Shown: positions 320 through 11,077 of the stretch, in pieces | Position numbering within the stretch: the first letter of the stretch is position 1 | Layout of the letters: each line of letters opens with the position of its first letter | Source of the DNA: Chloroflexota bacterium | GTDB taxonomy: Bacteria > Chloroflexota > Anaerolineae > UBA2200 | DNA length: 36,941 nucleotides | Assembly (NCBI GenBank): GCA_014360905.1 | Contig: JACIWW010000027.1 | Location: 1-36,941 of the forward strand | Reading direction: 5' to 3' | The notes under the pieces: model-generated | What the model was told of the DNA's origin: nothing | What the model saw: the letters and a program-made list of their open reading frames with translations, nothing else | Database searches by the model: none | Made by a program: the position numbers and the translations under genes

Positions 320-595
320 ATGGCTACGCTTCATATGGAAGTAGAGGTTGCCCGTAGCACACAGAACACTATGGCCAATACTTATCAGCAACTCTCTAGC
401 ATGGTGCAAAGCATGACCAGCACAGTCAATGGGCTGCAACCAGCTTGGTTGGGCAACTCTGCTACTGAATTCTTCGGCTTGTACGACCAATGGCGGGGCA
501 GTATGACCAACTTGTTGGATCAACTGCAACAGCTTTCCACTCGGTTGCAAGGTGAAATTACCGAGTGGGAGACCGTGGCCAGCAAACTGGTATAA
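320..595 (+). CDS. WXG100 (ESAT-6-like) protein
   Basis: This 91-residue protein has the size and pattern of the WXG100 family: two predicted amphipathic helices around a central turn that carries W-L-G (in AWLGNSA, about residues 43-45). Family members are small helical dimers exported by, and needed for, type VII secretion. The start ATG at 320 follows an AGGAGG at 308-313. The N-terminus (HM-x-x-E) and the end of the second helix (E-W-E) match the two longer WXG fusions in this locus, so they are paralogues. It lies first in the operon, 85 bases before the ATPase gene. Its place and small size suggest the core structural or co-exported WXG100 protein; this role is inferred. Confidence 0.9.
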   Translation: MATLHMEVEVARSTQNTMANTYQQLSSMVQSMTSTVNGLQPAWLGNSATEFFGLYDQWRGSMTNLLDQLQQLSTRLQGEITEWETVASKLV

Positions 596-680: not shown

Positions 681-3600
681 ATGGTTGGAGGCCAAGCCCC
701 CGCCCAACCTCAAGAGGTGGTCCAATATGGGCAAGGCGGGCATTGGTTTTTTATGCCTGCCATGCGGGAACCACTATGTTTGCCGTTAGATAATGTCGAA
801 CTACCCGCACCGGAGATCCCTCCTTCCCCACCTTCTCTCTCGAACCCATTTACTACTATTCTGCCCCCGATTATGCTCGTGATTGGAACCGCAGTGATTT
901 CGTTGCTCTCCAATAATTGGACCATGATGGGCCCTATGCTCATCATGAGCATGGCGTTTCCCCTTGCGAATATATTGAGTTACGCAGTACAAAAACGAAC
1001 CTACCGGCGTGCATGGGCAGAATATGAAGCGTCCTACCGCAAAAAGCTAGCGAAGATGCGCCGTCATCTGGACTCTTTGGCTGAAAACCAGCGTGCGCAA
1101 CTGGAAAAAGAGTACCCCACTGTTTCCAAGATGGTATCCATTGTTCTCGATCGCAATAAGCATTTATGGTGGCGGCGTGCTGATGACGAGGATTTTCTTG
1201 CCCTGCGCATAGGCACCGGCGACAGCAAACCATCTTTCAGTGTTTCACCACCGCGTACGGCTGACTCAAATAATCCTTTGACATCACTTGCATGGGAGCT
1301 TTCTCGATCTTATCAAAAGTTGCCCCATTTGCCTGTTCTATTGCCTCTGCAGCAGGTAGGCAGCCTGGCAATAGCTGGGAAACCTTCCTCAGCGGTTTAT
1401 GGTGTGGCGCGCCGCCTTGTACTGGATGTGCTAGTGCACCACTCACCAGAAGATGTACAGTTGGTCGTTATGACTGATTTACCTGAGGGAAGAGAACGAT
1501 GGGAATGGCTCAAGTGGGCGCCACACACCAGCGCGATTCATGCCGAAGAAGGCGTTTGCCGCCTGGCCTTCACTATGGACCAAGCTCAAGCTTGCCTAGA
1601 ATGGTTGAGGGAGCAATATCGTACCCGTTTTCCAACTACAGATACCACGTCTAATGTAATGAAAGAAGAGAGGCAGCCGGCAGCGATCATAGTGCTGTTA
1701 GACGATTCAGGGCGCATTCGCCAACATCCGGATATTGCGAACTTGGCCGCGCGAGGAAAAGAAGCAGGGATTTACCTGCTTTTTATCGGCGGGCAAGGTT
1801 GGCCACGTGAGTGCCGCGCTCGGCTAGACGTCCTGAGAGAGCACAATTTCCACTACCTTTCATCTCGAGCGGACAAAGAAAGTCTTACAACATGTGAAGG
1901 GATGTACGAGACCGCTTCGCTCGAGGATTGTGAATGTATCGCCCGTAGCTTGGCGCCACTAAAGGTGAGCACTGGACAAAGTGTATGCACCCTGCCGGAT
2001 AGCATTCGCATCTCGCAAGTCTTGGGAACGTTTTCACTAGAAGCATTGAAGCAAAATTGGATGGCAGAGCTTTCGCCAGCGGACATGCTTCAGTTGCCAG
2101 TGGGCGTGCGTGTCGGGCATGAGGGACTGGAGCCAATGATTATTGATCTACGTCCAGAGGGGCTGGGCGGTTATCAAGCATTCCATTCGGTGTTGATTGG
2201 CACTACGGGCAGCGGCAAAAGTGTTTTCTTGCAAACACTGATTCTGTCAGCAGCCTATCGTTATTCGCCGCGCTGGCTGAACTTTATGCTGATGGATTTT
2301 AAAGCAGGCGCCTCGGAATTGAGTAAACTGGAGAAATTGCCTCACGTCGTTGGCTTGGTAACAGATCTTACCCCTGAGCTAGCGACCCGGGCTCTGATCG
2401 CAGTCGATAGCGAAATTCGGCGACGTAAACAGGCCTTTGACGAAGCGGGCAAGTGCACTGGGATACGCATTTCAGATATTTGGGATTACAATAAACGTTT
2501 TCCGGGAGATCCTCTACCACATCTCCTGTTGGTATTGGACGAGTTTGCCAAAGGCATTGAACTCTTACCCGATTTGCAAAGAGTGTTGCAGTCATTGGCT
2601 CAACAAGGTCGAGCATTGGGAGTCTATCTCATTTTAGCCAATCAAAGAGTGACTCATGCCGTAGACACTTTGCTCTCTAACATTGGCTGGCGCATTGTCT
2701 TGCCGGTGGCCGAGCGTGACGAGATGCGCATTGTGGACAGGCTGCGTTCACCCAGTACTCGCCCAGGACGCGGTTATGTACGGGTTAAAGAGGAAGTCTA
2801 CGAGTTCCAAGGAGCACGTTCGGATGAAGCGACTCTCTCCCCTGACGCGGATGGCGTTGGATCTTTTACAATCTACACCATTGAGGCAGATGGCTCTTGG
2901 AAAACGTTGTACAAGTATAGCACCAATATTCCACAAGAAGACCGCAGTGAACAGACCTCTGCGCGCAAGTCCGAGCTGGAAACCTTGATTGATTGGATGA
3001 AGCAGGCTGAGCAAGACCTGGGATTGGTGCCGGCGCGACGAATTTACCTACCACCCTTGGAAGAACACATCCGCTTTGAGGAAATGCTGGAGGATTCTTC
3101 TTTGCCCTTGCGCTTCGAAGATGGCAGATGGCAGGGTGACTCACAAATATCCAGTAAATTGCTCGTTCCGCTAGGATATGTGGATTTGCTCGATGAATCC
3201 CGCCAGGAAATTCTGATGGTAAATTTTGAAGAGCAGGATGGGCATCTCTGGATCGTAGGTAGCCCCGGCAGCGGCAAGGCAATGAGCCTGATTACCTTGC
3301 TGTTGTCATTGGCATATACACATACCCCTGAAGAAGTACAATTTTACATCCTTGAATACGGGGCTGGTACATTGCTCTCTTTAGTAGATCTGCCACACAC
3401 TGGCGCAGTACTTCGTCTGGAGGAGAAAGAGCGCTTGCAACGTTTGCTCGCCTATCTGGATAAGGAGATGGAACAACGTCGAATCCATTTAGGAGGACAA
3501 AAGGTTGACGGAGCTTTCCCCAGTATTTTCTTGGTGGTCAATGACTTTGCTGAATTACGGGCGAACTATCCGGATGAGGCAGAACAGGTGGCCAGTTACG

Positions 3601-4640
3601 TGCGCAGCGGTAAAGCAGTCGGAATCCATGTCATCATCACCAGCAATCGTGGTACGGAGCTAAGCCGTTCCATCTCAGGCAACATTGCTCGCCGCTTGGT
3701 ATTGCAACTGACAAGCCGTAATGAGTACCTGGATGTAGTTAATCAGCCATTGACACCTCTGCCTAAACCTGTTCAGGGACGAGGTTACTGGATAGATCGC
3801 GGAGTGAGGGAATGCCAGGTAGCGCAGCCGCCGTGTGATATGAAGAACCTCGTGCAGCTTATGCGTAAGACCTGGCGCGGTGCTCTCCCTCACGAGATAA
3901 GAGCATTGCCTTCCTGCATTTCTCTGGCCTCGCTTCTTGATGCAGTGAAACCCATCCCTGGGAACGTGATTCCCATTGCTGTCGGACTAGCCTACGAAGA
4001 CTTGCGACTAATTACACCAAACTTGCTGGAGGAAATTCCTCAATGGCTGATTCTTGGGCCGCGGGAAAGTGGCAAGAGCAACTTTCTGGCCTGTATGGCA
4101 CGGAGCGTACTCCATGCTGATGCCAATGGATGGGAGGTATGGATTTTTTCGCCGCGCCGCAGTCTGGCCAACTTAGTAAACATAAATCAAGCCAAGCTTT
4201 TTAGCACTATCGAAGAAAGCGTCAAAGCGCTGGAAGAATTAAATGGACGTCTGAATCAAGGCCAGCCTGCAGCAAGCGGAAAGCGTTTGCTATTATTGCT
4301 GGATGATCTGGGATCTTTCTTCCAGTCAGGTCGTGAAAGAGCTGCCGCTGCACTCAATACCCTAACCACGGCTATTGAAAAAACCAATGAAGTTTACCTC
4401 GTTGCAGCAGGTTTGGTAGAAGAACTTCGGTTGCAAATGGGCAATGCGTTAATCCGCCTTTTACGCCAGAGCCGCACCGGAGTAGTGTTCTCGAAAGACA
4501 GCAATGATTTGGATTGGCTTGGCGCGCAGGTTTCGTGGGAATATCGCAAGATGGATTTACCGTGCGGGCGAGGTTTTTTTGTGAGCAAGGGTAAGGCGCA
4601 ATTGGTGCAAACACCGTTAACAGGGGAGTGCCCGAAATAG
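681..4640 (+). CDS. EccC/EssC-like FtsK/SpoIIIE type VII secretion ATPase
   Basis: This 1319-residue protein is the motor of a type VII secretion system. After a proline-rich N-terminus it has two membrane segments (about 61-77 and 83-100), then the H-L-W-W-R-R and D-F-L-A-L-R-I-G signature (161-178) typical of EccC, and three P-loop modules. Module 1 has G-T-T-G-S-G-K-S at 507-514 and Walker B ending D620-E621. Module 2 has G-S-P-G-S-G-K-A at 860-867 and an N-D-F end near 954-956. Module 3 has G-P-R-E-S-G-K-S at 1126-1133 and an L-D-D-L end near 1207-1210. There is no N-terminal FHA pair as in Firmicute EssC, so the layout is closer to a single-chain actinobacterial EccC. Only module 1 keeps the full catalytic D-E. 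The ATG at 681 has AAGGAG 12 bases upstream. Confidence 0.93.
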   Translation: MVGGQAPAQPQEVVQYGQGGHWFFMPAMREPLCLPLDNVELPAPEIPPSPPSLSNPFTTILPPIMLVIGTAVISLLSNNWTMMGPMLIMSMAFPLANILSYAVQKRTYRRAWAEYEASYRKKLAKMRRHLDSLAENQRAQLEKEYPTVSKMVSIVLDRNKHLWWRRADDEDFLALRIGTGDSKPSFSVSPPRTADSNNPLTSLAWELSRSYQKLPHLPVLLPLQQVGSLAIAGKPSSAVYGVARRLVLDVLVHHSPEDVQLVVMTDLPEGRERWEWLKWAPHTSAIHAEEGVCRLAFTMDQAQACLEWLREQYRTRFPTTDTTSNVMKEERQPAAIIVLLDDSGRIRQHPDIANLAARGKEAGIYLLFIGGQGWPRECRARLDVLREHNFHYLSSRADKESLTTCEGMYETASLEDCECIARSLAPLKVSTGQSVCTLPDSIRISQVLGTFSLEALKQNWMAELSPADMLQLPVGVRVGHEGLEPMIIDLRPEGLGGYQAFHSVLIGTTGSGKSVFLQTLILSAAYRYSPRWLNFMLMDFKAGASELSKLEKLPHVVGLVTDLTPELATRALIAVDSEIRRRKQAFDEAGKCTGIRISDIWDYNKRFPGDPLPHLLLVLDEFAKGIELLPDLQRVLQSLAQQGRALGVYLILANQRVTHAVDTLLSNIGWRIVLPVAERDEMRIVDRLRSPSTRPGRGYVRVKEEVYEFQGARSDEATLSPDADGVGSFTIYTIEADGSWKTLYKYSTNIPQEDRSEQTSARKSELETLIDWMKQAEQDLGLVPARRIYLPPLEEHIRFEEMLEDSSLPLRFEDGRWQGDSQISSKLLVPLGYVDLLDESRQEILMVNFEEQDGHLWIVGSPGSGKAMSLITLLLSLAYTHTPEEVQFYILEYGAGTLLSLVDLPHTGAVLRLEEKERLQRLLAYLDKEMEQRRIHLGGQKVDGAFPSIFLVVNDFAELRANYPDEAEQVASYVRSGKAVGIHVIITSNRGTELSRSISGNIARRLVLQLTSRNEYLDVVNQPLTPLPKPVQGRGYWIDRGVRECQVAQPPCDMKNLVQLMRKTWRGALPHEIRALPSCISLASLLDAVKPIPGNVIPIAVGLAYEDLRLITPNLLEEIPQWLILGPRESGKSNFLACMARSVLHADANGWEVWIFSPRRSLANLVNINQAKLFSTIEESVKALEELNGRLNQGQPAASGKRLLLLLDDLGSFFQSGRERAAAALNTLTTAIEKTNEVYLVAAGLVEELRLQMGNALIRLLRQSRTGVVFSKDSNDLDWLGAQVSWEYRKMDLPCGRGFFVSKGKAQLVQTPLTGECPK

Positions 4641-4665: not shown

Positions 4666-5592
4666 ATGGGCGTAATTCACATGGAGACCGAGATCGTCAA
4701 AGAGGGGGCGGAGTGTCTGTTGCATTTTGCCACGGATCTTTCGGCCATTGTGGACAGGCTTAGTTACCACGGCAGGATTCTAAGAGGCGCTTGGCAAGGT
4801 GGCAGGTCGGAGAACTTTGTGGCACAATTTAATGGGTTGATCCGCCAGATGAATGCGCACATTCAAGAACTGGATCAGTTGGGATTGCGCGTCATCAGAG
4901 AGGTAAACGAATGGGAGCAGGTGGACCGTGACAATTCATTCAAAACCTATTGGGAAGATAATTGGCTTCACATCCTGAAAGATGCTACCAAAATCGGCGT
5001 GGCTGCTTCGTTTGCGGCTATGATGAGAACATCGGTCCTGCGACCAAACAGCATTATAATCAGTGCTCCCCCACTACTTAGAGAGATCTTTGGGGGAAGA
5101 AAATTGCGAGCATTTATTGGTTTGGAAGAAACACTGAATATCATTAAGCCCTCTACACTGGCCAAGAAAATGTTCCTAATGAATCTGGCCGTTGAGGTCA
5201 CCCCCCAACTCATTAGCGATTTTAGAGAGTATGGGCTATCTAAACGATTTGTCTCTGCTGCTTTGGTTGATGCTGTACTGAAAAGTGCAAGTAGTTTATT
5301 GCTTTTCGGAGCTAGTAAATTGATAATGGCAGCGTCATTTTCGAATCCAGTCACTGGCGGTCTTATCCTTCTAACGTGGGTAGCTGGTCCGGTATTGTGG
5401 GATTATATCGAACCCGGTTTATCGCGGTGGTTTGAATCACATGTTACAACGAGGGAAGCATTGATTGAACAAGGGGTGCGCGCGATTGACAAAACCCTGA
5501 ATTTTGGTCAGTATGTGGTCCAATCTGCGCGTCAGAAAGCGGATCAGGTTTTCAGCGGCTACATCCGCGCGTTAGCTCCATCTACTATCTGA
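4666..5592 (+). CDS. WXG100-domain protein with hydrophobic C-terminal region (putative type VII substrate)
   Basis: The first ~90 residues of this 308-residue protein form a WXG100 hairpin with A-W-Q-G-G at 42-46 and an E-W-E-x-x-D end at 82-87, matching the other WXG proteins here. The remaining ~215 residues have no motif I recognise. They contain a long hydrophobic stretch (about 196-245) that could span a membrane once or twice, and an amphipathic C-terminal tail. A WXG or LXG domain joined to an extra domain is the usual build of a type VII effector, so it may be a secreted membrane-active protein, but it could also be a structural part of the machine. It starts 25 bases after the ATPase with a strong AAGGAGG site and is followed 10 bases later by an EspG-like gene. 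Confidence 0.75.
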   Translation: MGVIHMETEIVKEGAECLLHFATDLSAIVDRLSYHGRILRGAWQGGRSENFVAQFNGLIRQMNAHIQELDQLGLRVIREVNEWEQVDRDNSFKTYWEDNWLHILKDATKIGVAASFAAMMRTSVLRPNSIIISAPPLLREIFGGRKLRAFIGLEETLNIIKPSTLAKKMFLMNLAVEVTPQLISDFREYGLSKRFVSAALVDAVLKSASSLLLFGASKLIMAASFSNPVTGGLILLTWVAGPVLWDYIEPGLSRWFESHVTTREALIEQGVRAIDKTLNFGQYVVQSARQKADQVFSGYIRALAPSTI

Positions 5593-5602
5593 GAGGGTTG
5601 AG

Positions 5603-6439
5603 ATGACACAACAATGCATTCACTTATCGTTATCTGTTGATGAGCTTGCTTTGTGTTTCTCGCTGGTTAACAGCCCAGCCCAGGGCAGAGCGATCCTGTC
5701 TGAAACATATGGTCAACTAACGGAATCCGAAATCCAGGAGCGGTTGACTTCAGCCAGTCATTCTTTGCTAGCGCGCAAAATGGTAACGATTACCCCTGAG
5801 GCGACCGTTAAGCTGAGCCCAGAGATTGAATGGCTTCTCTATCCTTTGCTTCGTTACTATCGCGTAATTCAAGTAATGATTATGGATAGCGAAGGGCTGC
5901 CGACTATCACGAATATCCATCTAGGAACCAACCACAAATTCACAGCTCATCGAGTAGAGCAAGGCGTAGTCCATCTTCTTTGGCATGACGATGAAGGATC
6001 GCTTTGCCCTCTGATCGAGGAATGGCTATTGCCATGGAAAGAAATGCCAGTGTCCCTGGTTCAGGAGATTCAAAACAAAGAACAAAGGATTACTCTCGCT
6101 CGGTTAGCGGAATTGCAAAGCTTTTCAATGAAAGAAGCCCAGCGAGCACTTGTCTCCGATGGCATCAGCGCCCTTATTGCTTCTGAGCTGGCCATGGATG
6201 GTACACGTTCTCTGAAAAGGGGCAGCATTGTTTTTGTTGATGCTTCTCCAGAAAACATAGCGAATCTCGATCCTGCCCAGGCCGGTCCTGGTATTCTATT
6301 CATAACTGGTGAAAAGACGACTTGGATTTTTGCCTTTGAAGAGGTTAATGATGCGGCCATAGGGCAAATTGCGATCGGGAGCTTGGATGCTTTTCGAAAA
6401 GTATTCCAGGATTTTCTCCAGAGGCACGATGCACAATAA
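5603..6439 (+). CDS. Putative EspG-like type VII chaperone (paralogue 1)
   Basis: This soluble 278-residue protein has no signal peptide or membrane segment. It is similar in layout to the 251-residue protein encoded at 7447-8202: an N-terminal strand, a hydrophobic helix, an L-T-x-x-E helix start, a segment ending near T-I-T-P or R-P-T, and a mid-protein H-L-L-W ... D-D-E-G-S-L block matching H-L-L-L-F ... E-D-E-S-L in the other. Size and position recall EspG, the cytosolic chaperone that binds particular ESX substrates. It begins 10 bases after the WXG fusion gene, as expected for a dedicated partner. The EspG link rests on context and loose pattern only; an immunity protein for the upstream gene is the main alternative. 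Confidence 0.55.
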   Translation: MTQQCIHLSLSVDELALCFSLVNSPAQGRAILSETYGQLTESEIQERLTSASHSLLARKMVTITPEATVKLSPEIEWLLYPLLRYYRVIQVMIMDSEGLPTITNIHLGTNHKFTAHRVEQGVVHLLWHDDEGSLCPLIEEWLLPWKEMPVSLVQEIQNKEQRITLARLAELQSFSMKEAQRALVSDGISALIASELAMDGTRSLKRGSIVFVDASPENIANLDPAQAGPGILFITGEKTTWIFAFEEVNDAAIGQIAIGSLDAFRKVFQDFLQRHDAQ

Positions 6440-6445
6440 CGGCGT

Positions 6446-6735
6446 CTGTTGGTGCTTTCCATTCATGTTGAACCACATGAGCTGCGCCTGACTGCTCAGG
6501 CTGTGGAGCACAAGGCTCTGCAGATAGACTACAAGTGGAGAGTTCGCGTATTGCCTGAGCTTATTTAGAGATGGCCTGGCAGGGAAGAACGGCAGAGCTA
6601 TTTCTCATGGGAATGCAAGCGCTTTTATGGCGATTAGGCGCTAGGATCGAAGAATTAGATGCTCTAGCCTTGACTCTTTTGTGACAAGCTGATCGCTGGG
6701 AAGAGCGCGATCAATGCTGGAATAATCTTGCAAAC
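6446..6735 (+). pseudogene. Decayed WXG100-domain gene
   Basis: Two reading frames together spell a WXG100 domain. Frame one (6446-6568) reads S-I-H-V-E-P-H-E-L, the equivalent of the HM-x-x-E start of the intact paralogues, and stops at TAG 6566. Frame two begins beside it (6565 onward) with L-E-M-A-W-Q-G, the central WXG turn, continues as the second helix, meets TGA at 6682-6684, and resumes with A-D-R-W-E-E-R-D, the conserved helix end. A frameshift near 6560 and one internal stop are therefore needed. There is no clear start codon or ribosome site. A hydrophobic run follows (to about 6785), like the membrane segment after the WXG domain of the protease fusion, before the FHA gene begins. 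Confidence 0.75.
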
Positions 6736-6823
6736 ATTATGGCATTTATGCTAGCGCTTTCAATTCTTATGAACCTTTTATGTATTGAGAGGGATACGAG
6801 AAGAATCATCGAGTGCGACAAGT

Positions 6824-7420
6824 ATGGCTTATGTGAAAGTTACCGTTACTTATGCGCCAGATGGGCGCAAGGACCTTGCTTTACCATTGGAGGTACCAGT
6901 TGGTTTGCTAGCCAATGCACTTGCCGAGGCCTTACATCTGGCTCCACCTCACGAGCATTATGTGCTTAGCATACAAGGTAAAAAGGGCCCACAACGCTTA
7001 CCGGAAAACCTGGCATTGGGTGAAATTGCCGTTTTTCATGGGGCTGTCTTATCCCTGGTACGAGGCTCGGAAATACGTCCTATACCGGGTCCTTCACCTA
7101 AAACGCTGCTAGTTGTTAAGAGTGGCCAGACATACTCACTCAGAAAGATTACTACTATCATTGGTCGCCGTGATCCCAAGCGCGGTATTGAGGTAGATAT
7201 AGATCTCAGCCTATTGGATAAAAGGCCGCCAATAATCTCGCGCCGTCACGCTTCCATCACCTGTAAAGGGGAAATCTGTCTTCTGACCGATTTAGGGAGC
7301 ACGAACGGTACATGGCTGAACGAGGAATACCTGATACCCAACCAGCCGTATCTTTTGAAAGATGGGGATGAGATTGCCCTTGGTCGCAGCGGGGTGCGGT
7401 TGAAATTTCTCTGTCGTTAA
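6824..7420 (+). CDS. Ubiquitin-like (EsaB/YukD-type) plus FHA domain fusion
   Basis: From the ATG at 6824 the protein has 198 residues. Residues 1-80 look like a ubiquitin-like fold of the YukD/EsaB group (opening strand, G-x-x-x-L-x-L helix starting 'VGLLANAL', later 'LGEIAVFHGAVLSL'), which in type VII systems is a small regulatory protein or the head of EccD. Residues 92-198 are a complete FHA domain with G-R at 114-115, S-R-R-H at 129-132 and L-G-S-T-N-G-T at 147-153, so phosphothreonine binding should be intact. No Ser/Thr kinase lies in the window. An upstream TTG at 6785 would add 13 residues; neither start has a strong ribosome site, and I chose ATG because the Ub-like strand starts there. 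The 3' end meets the opposite-strand gene after 26 bases. Confidence 0.8.
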   Translation: MAYVKVTVTYAPDGRKDLALPLEVPVGLLANALAEALHLAPPHEHYVLSIQGKKGPQRLPENLALGEIAVFHGAVLSLVRGSEIRPIPGPSPKTLLVVKSGQTYSLRKITTIIGRRDPKRGIEVDIDLSLLDKRPPIISRRHASITCKGEICLLTDLGSTNGTWLNEEYLIPNQPYLLKDGDEIALGRSGVRLKFLCR

Positions 7421-7446
7421 TAGCGCCTTTCTTCGACAAAATCCAG

Positions 7447-8202
7447 TTACTGCCAGTGCACAACTGGAGCAAAGAGAAATTCCTTTGTCCCTGTCTTTCC
7501 TAATGTAGTGCTCCATAAATGGGCACCATTAGAGGCCAAGAAACGCATACCAACTAAGCGAAGCTCTCCCTTTTGGGCCCTAAAAAAGGTCAGTTGAGTC
7601 AAGCTTTTCCAATCTCGTAGGCAATCCAGTGCAACTGAGATCTCGCTGGGAGGCAGTCCGCAAACTTGCAAAGCACGATGAGCTGCCTGGGAATCACGCC
7701 AGAACAAGCTTAGAATAGGAATTGGCTCCGGTAGGCGCAGAGTTGGCCCAGGGTTTGGTTCGATGGTGATAGGAACCCCGAAAAGATTCCGACAATGCGT
7801 CCACAGACTTTCATCTTCTTGAAATAGGAGCAGGTGATAGCAATCATTCACGAATTCGAGCAAAAGGCTTTTCTCAGCGCGAGAATACAGCCCGGCTGTG
7901 CGTGCCTCAGCCTGAGAACGTAGGACTTGAATTAAGACAAGCCTTTCCGGAGCGCTTAGCCATTCCACAAGCGATGCGATAAAACGATCTATCTCCACGC
8001 CAATGCTCGCTGTTGGACGAATTAGGCCGTGCTGTATCAGTTCCATTCTGCCCTGATCCAGGCACACATTCAGCTCAGCGGGTGTAAGGGAACAAAAGGG
8101 ATTTCCAGGCAAAACTACGTCCACTTTGCCCAGAGCTTGCATTAACCAAAACAATGCACCCTTGCTTATTTCCAAACTGAACTCTTCAGTTTTCTCCATC
8201 AT
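7447..8202 (-). CDS. Putative EspG-like type VII chaperone (paralogue 2)
   Basis: A 251-residue soluble protein with no signal peptide. It shares with the 5603-6439 product an N-terminal L-E-I/S-V strand, hydrophobic helix, L-T-P-A-E helix start, G-L-I-R-P segment and a central H-L-L-L-F ... E-D-E-S-L block. The gene follows the WXG-protease gene by only 6 bases, repeating the substrate-then-partner order of the + strand arm. I infer that it escorts the protease fusion to the ATPase. An inhibitor that keeps the protease inactive inside the cell would explain the same arrangement. No enzymatic motif is visible. Confidence 0.55.
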   Translation of the reverse strand: MMEKTEEFSLEISKGALFWLMQALGKVDVVLPGNPFCSLTPAELNVCLDQGRMELIQHGLIRPTASIGVEIDRFIASLVEWLSAPERLVLIQVLRSQAEARTAGLYSRAEKSLLLEFVNDCYHLLLFQEDESLWTHCRNLFGVPITIEPNPGPTLRLPEPIPILSLFWRDSQAAHRALQVCGLPPSEISVALDCLRDWKSLTQLTFFRAQKGELRLVGMRFLASNGAHLWSTTLGKTGTKEFLFAPVVHWQ

Positions 8203-8208
8203 GCCCCC

Positions 8209-9342
8209 TTATGGCCGAATAACATACATAGAGTTCATCCCTTTTTCCCACATCTCCTCAAAGGTATCTGGATCTATCTGTACCTCCTTGCCACTCCAGG
8301 GGTCATTTACCACTAGTTGTCCTTCCTGGGCCATACCCTTAACAACCATAGAATGCATAGTATTTCCTGCCCCTTTAAGAGCTCGTTCTTTTCCCCCCAC
8401 TAGATTGACGCCAGCTGCAATGATAACTGGACCATCTTGGAGCGCTGTTCTCAATTCCTTCAGTGAGGCATTTACCTTGCTAATAGGGATTTGGTAGCCT
8501 AGCTGTTGCAGCTCATCGGTCACTTTAGAAAGGGAAATTCCTTTGCCAGGTATTCCATCACCAGGATCGAGCATCTTAATAAGTTCGTCCGGTGAAACAG
8601 TCTTATGAGAGGGATCTATAGCATGGAAATAATCTAGCACCATACTAACCGAAGCAGGCGCACAGGCAGCATTACCGTAGAGGCTACCTTGTGAGTGGAC
8701 AGGAACCTCGTGATAGATTTCGTATTTGGATGTAGATGATGCAGGTTGTGCTGAAACAGAGGCCGAGGGCTCGTTGCTTGTGGGTTGGTCAGGTTTTTCT
8801 GTGATGAGCTCGCGAAATGAACTCTTAGGAAGGCTTGGAGGAGTCTCTTCAGCGATAGGCGTGTGGATTTCCTGGGATGGAAAAAGCTTCTCCAACCATG
8901 TCCGCAGCCATGGAGGGAGAAGTCGGCTCCAGGGAAGTTCAGCCAAGATAAGTGGCGGGGAAAAGCCGCTAGAAAGGAAGGCAGTGGAAAGGAATAGCCC
9001 GCTTACTCCACCAGTGATCAGAGGTGTCTGCTTAAACGGCATAGCGGTTCTGCTTGCTGTCCAATAGCGTGCGCCACGTTGATCAGTCTCTTCCCACTCG
9101 GCGACTTCGTGCTCGAGGTGGATGGACAGTTCAAATAAGGTGGTGATTTGCTCACTCAACTTGGTTGCCAGGTGTTCAGCTTCTGCCTGGAATTTGGCGT
9201 GTCCTCCGCCTTGCCAAGCACATGACAATGCATCCAGAGCACGGTGCAAGGAGAACAACTCTCCTTCAGCCATTTTAGCTGTGTGGCGCATTTTGGCAGC
9301 AAGGTTGCGGATTTCCTCTGTTTGCATGTGAAGGATAGCCAT
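8209..9342 (-). CDS. WXG100 domain fused to C39-like cysteine protease (putative type VII effector)
   Basis: Residues 1-90 of this 377-residue protein are a WXG100 hairpin with A-W-Q-G at 42-45 and E-W-E-E-T-D at 82-87. A hydrophobic segment (about 107-135) and a Ser/Pro/Thr-rich linker (about 160-205) lead to a papain-like C39-type peptidase domain (about 206-377). The catalytic set is visible: oxyanion Gln218, Cys227 in N-A-A-C-A-P-A-S, His330 in T-M-H-S-M-V-V, and Asp347 (or Asn346) in V-N-D-P-W. This build suggests a protease exported through the nearby ATPase, perhaps tethered by the hydrophobic segment; a role in processing other substrates is also possible. The ATG at 9342 follows GGAGGAG. 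The partner gene begins 6 bases downstream. Confidence 0.85.
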   Translation of the reverse strand: MAILHMQTEEIRNLAAKMRHTAKMAEGELFSLHRALDALSCAWQGGGHAKFQAEAEHLATKLSEQITTLFELSIHLEHEVAEWEETDQRGARYWTASRTAMPFKQTPLITGGVSGLFLSTAFLSSGFSPPLILAELPWSRLLPPWLRTWLEKLFPSQEIHTPIAEETPPSLPKSSFRELITEKPDQPTSNEPSASVSAQPASSTSKYEIYHEVPVHSQGSLYGNAACAPASVSMVLDYFHAIDPSHKTVSPDELIKMLDPGDGIPGKGISLSKVTDELQQLGYQIPISKVNASLKELRTALQDGPVIIAAGVNLVGGKERALKGAGNTMHSMVVKGMAQEGQLVVNDPWSGKEVQIDPDTFEEMWEKGMNSMYVIRP

Positions 9343-9398
9343 GGTCTTTTCTCCTCCGTGTTAAAGTCACACCAGTATACAGCCTGTACAGTTCGTTT

Positions 9399-9929
9399 CT
9401 AAACCAATTCCTTCAGTGCTCGCGCGTACGCCTCATAAGCCGAGCTACCGAACAGGACGAAGCGTACTAACTCGATTTCAGGATGGGACTGCAGGTATTC
9501 CATCACCGTCCGCAGCGCAATTGGTGCCGCCAGTTCGATGGGGTAGCCATAGGCGCCGGTGCTGATGGATGGGAATGCCACGCTCTTGATGCCGTGCTTG
9601 GAAGCCAGTTCCAGGCTGTAACGGTAAGCACTAGCCAGGGTCTCTGCCTCCCCTTGCGTTCCACCGCGGTAGATGGGGCCCACGGCATGGATGACGTACT
9701 TGGCCTTCAGTTTGCCTCCGCTGGTGATGCGCGCTTCACCAGGCGGGCAACCGCCGATTTCGCGGCATTCTTCGAGGATCTGTGGTCCCCCAGCACGGTG
9801 TATGGCTCCATCCACGCCGCCCCCGCCTAAAAGGCTTGGGTTTGCCGCATTGACAATTGCTTCGGTATCCTGCTGCGTAATGTCGCCCTGCACCAACTCC
9901 AGTTTGGATTTTCCAACCGTTACCTCCAT
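9399..9929 (-). CDS. Macro-domain protein (ADP-ribose binding, YmdB-like)
   Basis: This 176-residue protein is a single macro domain of normal length. Visible are Q-G-D-I-T (14-18, Asp16 for the adenine), V-N-A-A-N-P (26-31), the [10 protein letters not shown] loop (35-44) and the phosphate loop [10 protein letters not shown] (121-130). Family members bind ADP-ribose and many remove O-acetyl groups or mono-ADP-ribose. It lies 14 bases after the asparaginase gene, with GGAGG upstream of its ATG, so the two are probably co-transcribed; the WXG-protease gene follows after 56 bases. A link to the secretion locus is possible but only by position. Confidence 0.92.
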
Positions 9930-9943
9930 CTTTCAAACCTCCA

Positions 9944-10870
9944 TTAGCCGCGATAAACAACCGCTTCTCGCACTTCCGGCGCGCGGGAATCCTCCCACAT
10001 GACCAGGTAGTGCTCCCCGGCGGACTTGGTCGTAATGCCAAAGGGGTGGCTATTGCGATCCATGGCGACGATGCTCATGGTGCCGCCACTGGATGCCAGG
10101 ATGGGCTGCAAGTCACGCATTGCCTCATGACAGGCTTCCTCAACGCTCATGCCTATCTTCATGTACAATACGATGCTGCGGGCTGTGCCAGCGCGAATAG
10201 CGGACTCTCCGTGGTGGGTGCATGCTGCTGCCCCGTAGCGGTTGTCGGCGTAGTTGCCCGCTCCGATGATCGGCGAATCGCCCAAACGGCCTGGGTATTT
10301 CCAGGGCCAGCCACTGGTGCTAACGCCGCAAGCGATGTTCCCCTGCTGGTCGCGGGCGATGAAATTGACCGTACCTTGGCGGAGCCGGCTGTTGATGAGA
10401 TCCTTGACCAAGGGAAGCAGTTCCTTCCGGTCTGGCAGGGCATCGATCTCAGTATCGGGAATCAGTTCACGCAAGCGCTCCTGCCACTTGTTCCGCGCTC
10501 GCTCTATGGGCAGATTGCAACGAGAAAAGCCCAGCTCAGCGGCAAAGCGGTTTGCGCCTTCCCCCACCAGGATGACATGTGGCGTCAGTTCCATGACACG
10601 GCGGGCAATGGAGATAGGATGAGCATACCCTTGCATGGCCCCCACAGCACCTGCTGCCAGTGTGCGCCCGTCCATGATGCTGGCATCCAGTTCTACTTGT
10701 CCCAGTACGTTGGGCAGACCACCCACACCAACTCCTTCATCCTGCTCATTGAGTTCCACCAGCCGGATGCCTGCTTCAACAGCATCGAGCGCTGTGCCTC
10801 CTTCGCGTAGCACTTGCATTGCCTTCTCGATACCCGGCTGGCCATTGTGCGATGTAACGACCAACATCAT
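9944..10870 (-). CDS. Asparaginase/isoaspartyl peptidase family Ntn-hydrolase
   Basis: This 308-residue protein belongs to the N4-(beta-N-acetylglucosaminyl)-L-asparaginase family, which self-cleaves before a threonine that then acts as nucleophile. The G-T-V-N-F stretch in mid-protein supplies the Thr, and P-G-R-x-G-D-S-P-I-I-G-A-G with Y-A-D-N downstream forms the substrate pocket typical of the family. Normal N-terminal features (T-S-H-N-G, A-L-D-A-V-E-A-G-I, D-E-G-V-G-V-G-G-L-P-N) are present. The start at 10870 is chosen over 10906 because AGGAG lies 7 bases before it. It likely hydrolyses glycosyl-asparagine, asparagine or beta-aspartyl peptides; the exact substrate cannot be read from sequence. 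Confidence 0.92.
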   Translation of the reverse strand: MMLVVTSHNGQPGIEKAMQVLREGGTALDAVEAGIRLVELNEQDEGVGVGGLPNVLGQVELDASIMDGRTLAAGAVGAMQGYAHPISIARRVMELTPHVILVGEGANRFAAELGFSRCNLPIERARNKWQERLRELIPDTEIDALPDRKELLPLVKDLINSRLRQGTVNFIARDQQGNIACGVSTSGWPWKYPGRLGDSPIIGAGNYADNRYGAAACTHHGESAIRAGTARSIVLYMKIGMSVEEACHEAMRDLQPILASSGGTMSIVAMDRNSHPFGITTKSAGEHYLVMWEDSRAPEVREAVVYRG

Positions 10871-11077
10871 TGTTGTTCTCCTTGTTTGTGTTGATGAGGA
10901 ACGCATTTATTTTAGATGCAGAAGTGCAGAAGGGCAAATGGGAGCATTCCCATAACTGTTCAGTTAACGCGGACGCGCAGCGTTCGCGCCGATAAACGAA
11001 TACACGGCGCAGCTCACTCGTGGCTCATTCCTTGTTGGCGATTGGATACGTGGTAAGTCCTGTTTGCTACGAACTAA

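What the first reader, a model, noticed from the sequence alone, without database searches (positions are those of the whole stretch)
5603..8202. Two EspG-like proteins, each paired with one WXG fusion
The products of 5603-6439 and 7447-8202 share length class, N-terminal pattern and a central H-L-L ... D/E-D-E-x-S-L block, and each gene follows a WXG-fusion gene by 10 and 6 bases. The repeated substrate-partner order on opposite strands suggests dedicated chaperones, or immunity proteins, in a phylum where EspG has not been clearly described to my knowledge.
Basis: partly seen in the sequence, partly recalled or inferred. Interest (0 to 1): 0.7.

Follow-up and report, generated by a model that had tools for sequence, protein, structure and literature searches.

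The report
Paired EspG-type secretion chaperones in Chloroflexota
Two small genes in a Chloroflexota (Anaerolineae-type) bacterium encode distant relatives of EspG, the helper proteins that guide proteins into the type VII secretion machine of mycobacteria, and each sits directly behind the one probable secreted protein it most likely escorts; relatives across the phylum repeat this one-helper-per-cargo pairing.

Summary
Genes 5603-6439 (+) and 7447-8202 (-) follow WXG100-fusion genes by 10 and 6 bases. BLASTP sees no similarity between their products, but a profile of relatives built without either finds both over nearly full length (E 5e-29 and 3e-19; best non-member 0.3). The family profile's best hits in the whole PDB are EspG1 and EspG5. 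AlphaFold2 models of both match only EspG structures with confidence (Foldseek probability 1.00; VIA Z 14-18; next unrelated chains Z 5 or less).

Both are therefore EspG-family proteins, in a phylum for which I found no published EspG. About 10% of sampled Chloroflexota genomes carry the family, some with seven or eight copies. A WXG protein lies directly upstream of 38 of 61 copies (control genes 10 of 239). The partner is nearly always a long WXG fusion with a variable C-terminus, not a short WXG100 protein. The two window proteins fall in different clades, and arrays elsewhere mix distant clades, so these are substrate-chaperone cassettes rather than tandem duplicates.

Best reading: each is a dedicated cytosolic secretion chaperone for its neighbour. 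Immunity is less likely: in some relatives a separate, variable membrane protein or lipoprotein gene lies between the fusion and EspG. Binding and cognate specificity are untested.

The parts
5603..6439 (+). EspG-type chaperone 1 (278 aa, P0001)
   Evidence: Held-out family profile E 5.4e-29; AF2 pLDDT 77.6, pTM 0.71; Foldseek top 15 all EspG, prob 1.00; VIA Z 14.1-17.6 to EspG1/3/5 over 229-252 residues, rmsd 3.3-4.3 A
7447..8202 (-). EspG-type chaperone 2 (251 aa, P0002)
   Evidence: Held-out family profile E 3.1e-19 over residues 2-235; AF2 pLDDT 77.1, pTM 0.73; Foldseek top 18 all EspG, prob 1.00, E down to 2e-11; VIA Z 15.0-17.3
4666..5592 (+). Probable T7SS substrate 1: WXG100 domain fused to a ~210 aa C-terminus of unknown function (308 aa), 10 bases before EspG 1
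   Evidence: WXG100 E 2.2e-5 at residues 5-87; TIGR03930 E 1.9e-5; its WXG part is 30% identical to that of substrate 2, E 3e-12
8209..9342 (-). Probable T7SS substrate 2: WXG100 domain fused to a C39-like cysteine peptidase domain (377 aa), 6 bases before EspG 2
   Evidence: WXG100 E 2.5e-7 and Peptidase_C39_2 E 1.6e-9
681..4640 (+). EccC/EssC-type secretion ATPase (1319 aa), just upstream of substrate 1
   Evidence: FtsK_SpoIIIE E 2.7e-59; EssC TIGR03928 580 bits and EccCa TIGR03924 390 bits, each below its cut-off; best PDB relatives 4nh0 (listed as FtsK/SpoIIIE; EccC from my own knowledge) and EccC5
320..595 (+). Stand-alone WXG100 protein (91 aa), likely small partner/core EsxA-like protein
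   Evidence: PF06013 45.6 bits, over cut-off; TIGR03930 48.8 bits, over cut-off
6785..7420 (+). YukD (EsaB-like) domain fused to an FHA domain (211 aa), between the two convergent EspG genes
   Evidence: YukD E 6.9e-10 and FHA E 7.6e-17

Best explanation
Both genes encode EspG-family chaperones of a type VII secretion system, each dedicated to the WXG100-fusion substrate encoded immediately upstream in the same transcription unit. Proposed mechanism: the fusion's N-terminal helical WXG part (perhaps with a small WXG100 partner) is bound in the cytosol by its own EspG, which caps an exposed helical surface, keeps the substrate soluble and unassembled, and presents it to the EccC/EssC ATPase; the EspG stays behind when the substrate leaves. 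Shown here: family membership, fold, T7SS locus, recurrent gene pairing with long WXG fusions, and separate ancestry of the two EspGs. Inferred: physical binding, one-to-one specificity, cytosolic retention and delivery to EccC/EssC.
For: Profile built without either window protein finds P0001 (5.4e-29) and P0002 (3.1e-19) while the best non-member scores 0.32. A neighbouring relative in L018 passes Pfam's EspG cut-off (32.4 vs 27 bits) and is found by the P0001-family profile at 102 bits. The 65-member family profile against 177,635 PDB sequences ranks EspG1 first (5.5e-6) and EspG5 next (0.009). AF2 models of both match only EspG structures with confidence. WXG protein directly upstream in 38 of 61 members versus 10 of 239 control genes (Fisher p 4e-23); 36 of those 38 partners are fusions of 200 aa or more; fusions are followed by EspG in 35 of 51 cases, short WXG100 proteins in 2 of 43. 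Repeated at 11 of 20 scorable copies in loci from other parts of the phylum. C-termini of fusions scanned vary (C39 peptidase, lipase, other alpha/beta hydrolase, glycine zipper) while the WXG part is constant. P0001 and P0002 lie in different clades, and arrays of up to four cassettes mix clades.
Against: No interface model, expression or binding data exist. 23 of 61 copies have no recognised WXG gene directly upstream; some of these are cut by contig ends or carry one intervening gene, but others remain unexplained. Similarity of EspG tracks the C-terminal part of the fusions at least as well as the WXG part (matrix correlation 0.59 versus 0.41), so binding to the WXG part specifically is not shown. 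Neither window protein reaches Pfam's EspG model by itself.
Confidence: 0.78

Rival explanations
1. They are immunity proteins: each neutralises the C-terminal (toxic) domain of the upstream WXG fusion in the producer.
For: Gene order toxin-then-small-gene with 6-10 base gaps is typical of toxin-immunity pairs; substrate 2 carries a peptidase domain; EspG similarity also follows C-terminal similarity among pairs.
Against: All members share one fold and family, that of a known secretion chaperone, although the C-terminal domains they accompany are unrelated. In several relatives a separate variable gene (lipoprotein, membrane or small soluble protein) lies between fusion and EspG and looks like the immunity gene.
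Confidence: 0.1
2. They are general chaperones of this secretion system that serve any WXG substrate; adjacency reflects operon structure and not specificity, as in mycobacteria where one EspG per ESX system serves many PPE proteins.
For: In mycobacteria a single EspG per system acts as adapter for many substrates (PMC10765036); not every copy has a WXG fusion next to it.
Against: Two very divergent EspGs coexist in this locus, each beside one fusion, and come from different clades; other genomes carry up to 8 copies. A general chaperone would not need one copy per substrate.
Confidence: 0.1
3. EspG-fold proteins with a different job, e.g. subunits of a pre-secretion complex that are exported, or regulators.
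For: Fold alone does not prove function; partners here are WXG100 fusions, not PE-PPE proteins.
Against: Every experimentally studied EspG-fold protein I found in the literature (EspG1/3/5, EsaE) is a T7SS targeting chaperone; the genomic context here is a T7SS locus.
Confidence: 0.02

Closest known systems
EspG1/EspG3/EspG5 (Pfam PF14011) of mycobacterial ESX systems (T7SSa)
   Same: Sequence family at profile level, full-length fold, encoded in a T7SS locus.
   Different: Partner is a WXG100 fusion and not a PE-PPE pair; up to 8 EspGs per genome, typically paired with individual WXG fusions, instead of one EspG per system serving many substrates; sequence identity to solved EspGs in structural alignments 7-15%.
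EsaE of Staphylococcus aureus (T7SSb), chaperone of the nuclease toxin EsaD
   Same: EspG-fold chaperone encoded beside and specific to one toxin with an N-terminal helical T7SS domain (PMC10653861).
   Different: EsaE is reported to lack sequence homology to EspG; the Chloroflexota family has it by profile. esaE lies upstream of esaD, here the chaperone follows the substrate, and no EsxB/C/D-like trio was identified at the window pairs.
Bacillus subtilis YfjC, downstream of the predicted pore-forming toxin YfjB
   Same: EspG-fold protein encoded immediately downstream of a T7-associated effector (PMC10765036): the same gene order.
   Different: No sequence similarity to EspG reported; a single pair in Bacillota. 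Direct comparison with the present proteins not made here.
TscG, TshG and the T7SSi EspG-like protein of Garrett et al. 2024
   Same: EspG-like component encoded at T7SS loci outside the Actinomycetota (PMC11217815).
   Different: That survey covered Bacillota and Actinomycetota only and treats them as system components, not as one chaperone per substrate.

Membership tests
EspG family (PF14011, T7SS targeting chaperones) | Sequence homology to EspG, at least at profile level | tested here: met
   Family profile hits EspG1 (5.5e-6) and EspG5 (0.009) in the PDB; 15 of 65 members match PF14011 at E<=0.01, best 1.3e-11; both window proteins belong to that family by held-out profile. As single sequences P0001 and P0002 give no PF14011 hit.
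EspG family (PF14011, T7SS targeting chaperones) | EspG fold over the whole chain | tested here: met
   P0001: VIA Z 14.1-17.6, 229-252 residues aligned; P0002: Z 15.0-17.3, 218-237 residues aligned; first unrelated chains Z 5.0 and 3.8. Models were predicted without templates at pLDDT 77.
EspG family (PF14011, T7SS targeting chaperones) | Encoded with a type VII secretion system | tested here: met
   EccC/EssC-type ATPase, WXG100 protein and YukD-FHA protein in the same 9 kb.
EspG family (PF14011, T7SS targeting chaperones) | Binds the helical tip of a T7SS substrate and is needed for its export | not testable with these tools
   Only single-chain prediction was available; linkage to a substrate gene is shown statistically, binding is not.
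T7SS immunity protein | Family changes with the toxin domain it neutralises | tested here: not met
   One fold and family accompanies C39 peptidase, lipase, hydrolase and glycine-zipper C-termini.
T7SSa (ESX type) machine | EccB and EccD membrane components | tested here: inconclusive
   PF19053 (EccD) and PF05108 (EccB) gave no match in this genome; the EccB search had no positive control, EccD had only weak hits in controls, the contig starts 319 bp before the WXG100 gene and the assembly is about 96% complete.

The most novel reading that the evidence does not exclude
In Chloroflexota, type VII secretion is organised as exchangeable cassettes, each made of a WXG100-fusion effector, often a variable (immunity-like) gene, and a private EspG that recognises only its own effector; cassettes from distant lineages are collected side by side in one locus, so substrate choice is set by a large, diversified set of EspGs and not by one EspG per machine.
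Probability: 0.4. Interest if true: 0.65.

Novelty: new variant of a known kind. Interest (0 to 1): 0.5.

Why it matters
It extends the EspG chaperone family, by sequence and not only by fold, to a phylum where type VII secretion is almost unstudied, and it supplies dozens of natural substrate-chaperone pairs. That makes the open question of how an EspG-fold chaperone reads its substrate testable by comparing many divergent cognate pairs, and gives a simple handle (the EspG gene) for finding T7SS substrates with unknown C-terminal domains in Chloroflexota.

Tried and rejected
Direct Pfam and NCBIfam scans of the two proteins gave no EspG hit. BLASTP between the two found nothing. Single-protein search with P0002 in 301 phylum and 100 related genomes gave only marginal partial hits, best E 0.002. 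Three IMG/VR scans found no relatives, so there is no sign of a phage origin. Matrix correlation between EspG and the two parts of its partner did not separate 'reads the WXG part' from 'reads the C-terminus' (0.41 vs 0.59; C-terminal similarities are mostly near zero, so weak evidence). Local tandem duplication as origin of the two EspGs was rejected: they lie in different clades. The C-terminus of substrate 1 was considered as a membrane-inserting domain, but its hydropathy peak is only 1.63, so this is not claimed.

Full report
The two reading frames named in the finding exist as described. The first, 5603-6439 on the + strand (P0001, 278 aa), starts 10 bases after 4666-5592; the second, 7447-8202 on the - strand (P0002, 251 aa), starts 6 bases after 8209-9342. 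Both upstream genes encode proteins with an N-terminal WXG100 domain; the second also has a C39-like cysteine peptidase domain. The two WXG parts are 30% identical to each other and 27% identical to a separate 91 aa WXG100 protein at 320-595. An EccC/EssC-type ATPase (681-4640) and a YukD-FHA fusion (6785-7420) complete a type VII secretion locus cut by the contig start.

P0001 and P0002 show no BLASTP similarity to each other and no Pfam or NCBIfam EspG hit as single sequences. P0001 has relatives at 18-24% identity in other genomes of its class. Most follow a gene whose product carries a recognisable WXG100 domain, and in one of them (L018) the next gene is a Pfam-grade EspG (32.4 bits, cut-off 27). 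A six-sequence profile from P0001's relatives finds that Pfam-grade EspG at 102 bits and 40 of 346 genomes of the class. Iterating on the fetched loci gave 70 members. With both window proteins left out of the profile, P0001 scores 5.4e-29 and P0002 3.1e-19 along nearly its full length, while the best non-member scores 0.32. So the two are homologous to each other and to EspG.

Independent links to EspG: scanning 65 members one by one against all of Pfam, PF14011 is the only family hit by more than one member (15 of 65, best 1.3e-11). The 65-member profile against all PDB sequences puts EspG1 first (5.5e-6), the EspG5 entries next (0.009-0.023), and EspG3 further down (0.48 and 0.65). Template-free AF2 models of P0001 (pLDDT 77.6, pTM 0.71) and P0002 (77.1, 0.73) find only EspG structures with confidence: all top 15 and top 18 Foldseek hits are EspG, at probability 1.00; below them the probability drops to 0.16 for P0001 and to 0.69 or less, with TM at most 0.25, for P0002. 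Realignment gives Z 14-18 over 218-252 residues against Z 5.0 and 3.8 for the first unrelated chains.

The pairing was tested on 61 EspG members of at least 240 aa with at least 600 bp upstream. A WXG protein lies directly upstream on the same strand in 38, against 10 of 239 control genes in the same loci (Fisher p 4e-23); directly downstream it is 14 of 58. Of the 38 partners, 36 are fusions of at least 200 aa (median 394 aa). Seen from the other side, 35 of 51 long fusions are followed by an EspG but only 2 of 43 short WXG100 proteins are. Allowing up to 1.3 kb, 51 of 69 have a long WXG fusion upstream. In a second set of loci from other parts of the phylum, not used to build the profiles, 11 of 20 scorable copies have a WXG protein as the immediate upstream gene. 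The control is imperfect: the loci were collected through EspG hits and the WXG profile was iterated on the same loci, although Pfam and NCBIfam independently recognise WXG100 in 42 and 45 of 47 fusions.

The C-termini of the fusions differ: C39 peptidase, lipase class 3, other alpha/beta hydrolase or cutinase-like, glycine zipper, and many without a match. One chaperone family accompanying many C-terminal types is what a chaperone of the shared WXG module would show. However, EspG similarity correlates with C-terminal similarity at least as strongly as with WXG similarity (0.59 vs 0.41), so the data show co-inheritance of pairs and not which part is read.

P0001 and P0002 do not descend from a local duplication: P0001 falls in a 14-member clade with 0.993 support that excludes P0002. 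In arrays with two to four EspGs the members usually span the tree, with L144 (sisters) as an exception (the tree is from divergent sequences, so deep branches are weak). This fits cassettes of substrate plus chaperone gathered from different lineages. Prevalence: 31 of 301 sampled genomes of the phylum, with 7-8 matches in most genomes of one genus. The phylum is Chloroflexota, inferred from the titles of the relatives' records (Anaerolineae, Anaerolineales, Ardenticatenaceae). The one other genome held of the same genus has no match to the P0001-family profile.

Immunity: in several relatives a variable gene lies between fusion and EspG. Two look like lipoproteins (L102, L093; lipobox-like N-termini by eye), others like membrane proteins (L101, L107, L082) or small soluble proteins (L092, L094). 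These are better immunity candidates than a conserved EspG. In the window no such gene exists, so either the substrates need none or EspG has an additional role there.

Known context: EspG chaperones bind the helical tip of PE-PPE pairs and adapt them to their ESX system (PMC11217815, PMC10765036). EsaE, specific to the toxin EsaD, and B. subtilis YfjC, encoded right behind the predicted pore-forming toxin YfjB, share the EspG fold without sequence homology (PMC10653861, PMC10765036). WXG100 proteins in Chloroflexota have been noted (PMC3935865, PMC10765036), but no paper in the searched library pairs EspG with this phylum, and the 2024 survey of T7SS variants covers Bacillota and Actinomycetota only. 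Subscription papers and preprints were not searchable.

Conclusion: both proteins are EspG-family (about 0.97 by my judgement). Dedicated chaperone function for the neighbouring fusion is the best explanation (0.78). Binding, specificity and export dependence remain to be shown.

Noticed in passing
L102:3189-3788, L093:1520-2086, L101:7779-8525, L107:11941-12525, L082:2425-2919, L092:7897-8457, L094:15403-16239: A variable gene (lipoprotein-like, membrane or small soluble product) lies between the WXG fusion and EspG in several relatives: candidate immunity genes, giving an order effector - variable gene - EspG.
   Followed up: partly
6785-7420: YukD (EsaB-like) domain fused to an FHA domain, while no FHA domain was found in the EccC-type ATPase of the same locus; the same fusion follows EspG in L022:2324-3037. 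FHA may have moved from the ATPase to the YukD protein in this lineage.
   Followed up: no
7447-10906: Four minus-strand genes in a row with gaps of 14, 56 and 6 bases: asparaginase_2 family (9944-10906), macro domain (9399-9929), WXG-C39 fusion, EspG. Possible read-through transcription.
   Followed up: no
L045:12953-15965: One WXG fusion is followed by two EspG genes in tandem from distant clades; the second passes Pfam's EspG cut-off.
   Followed up: no
genomes G034, G043, G078, G102, G110, G281: One genus carries 7-8 EspG matches per genome, including shorter ones with 235-236 aa frames.
   Followed up: partly
8209-9342: The C39-like domain keeps a Cys (NAACAPASVS), a His (TMHSMVV) and an Asn-Asp (VVNDPW) at places typical of C39-like peptidases by eye, so it may be an active enzyme.
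   Followed up: no
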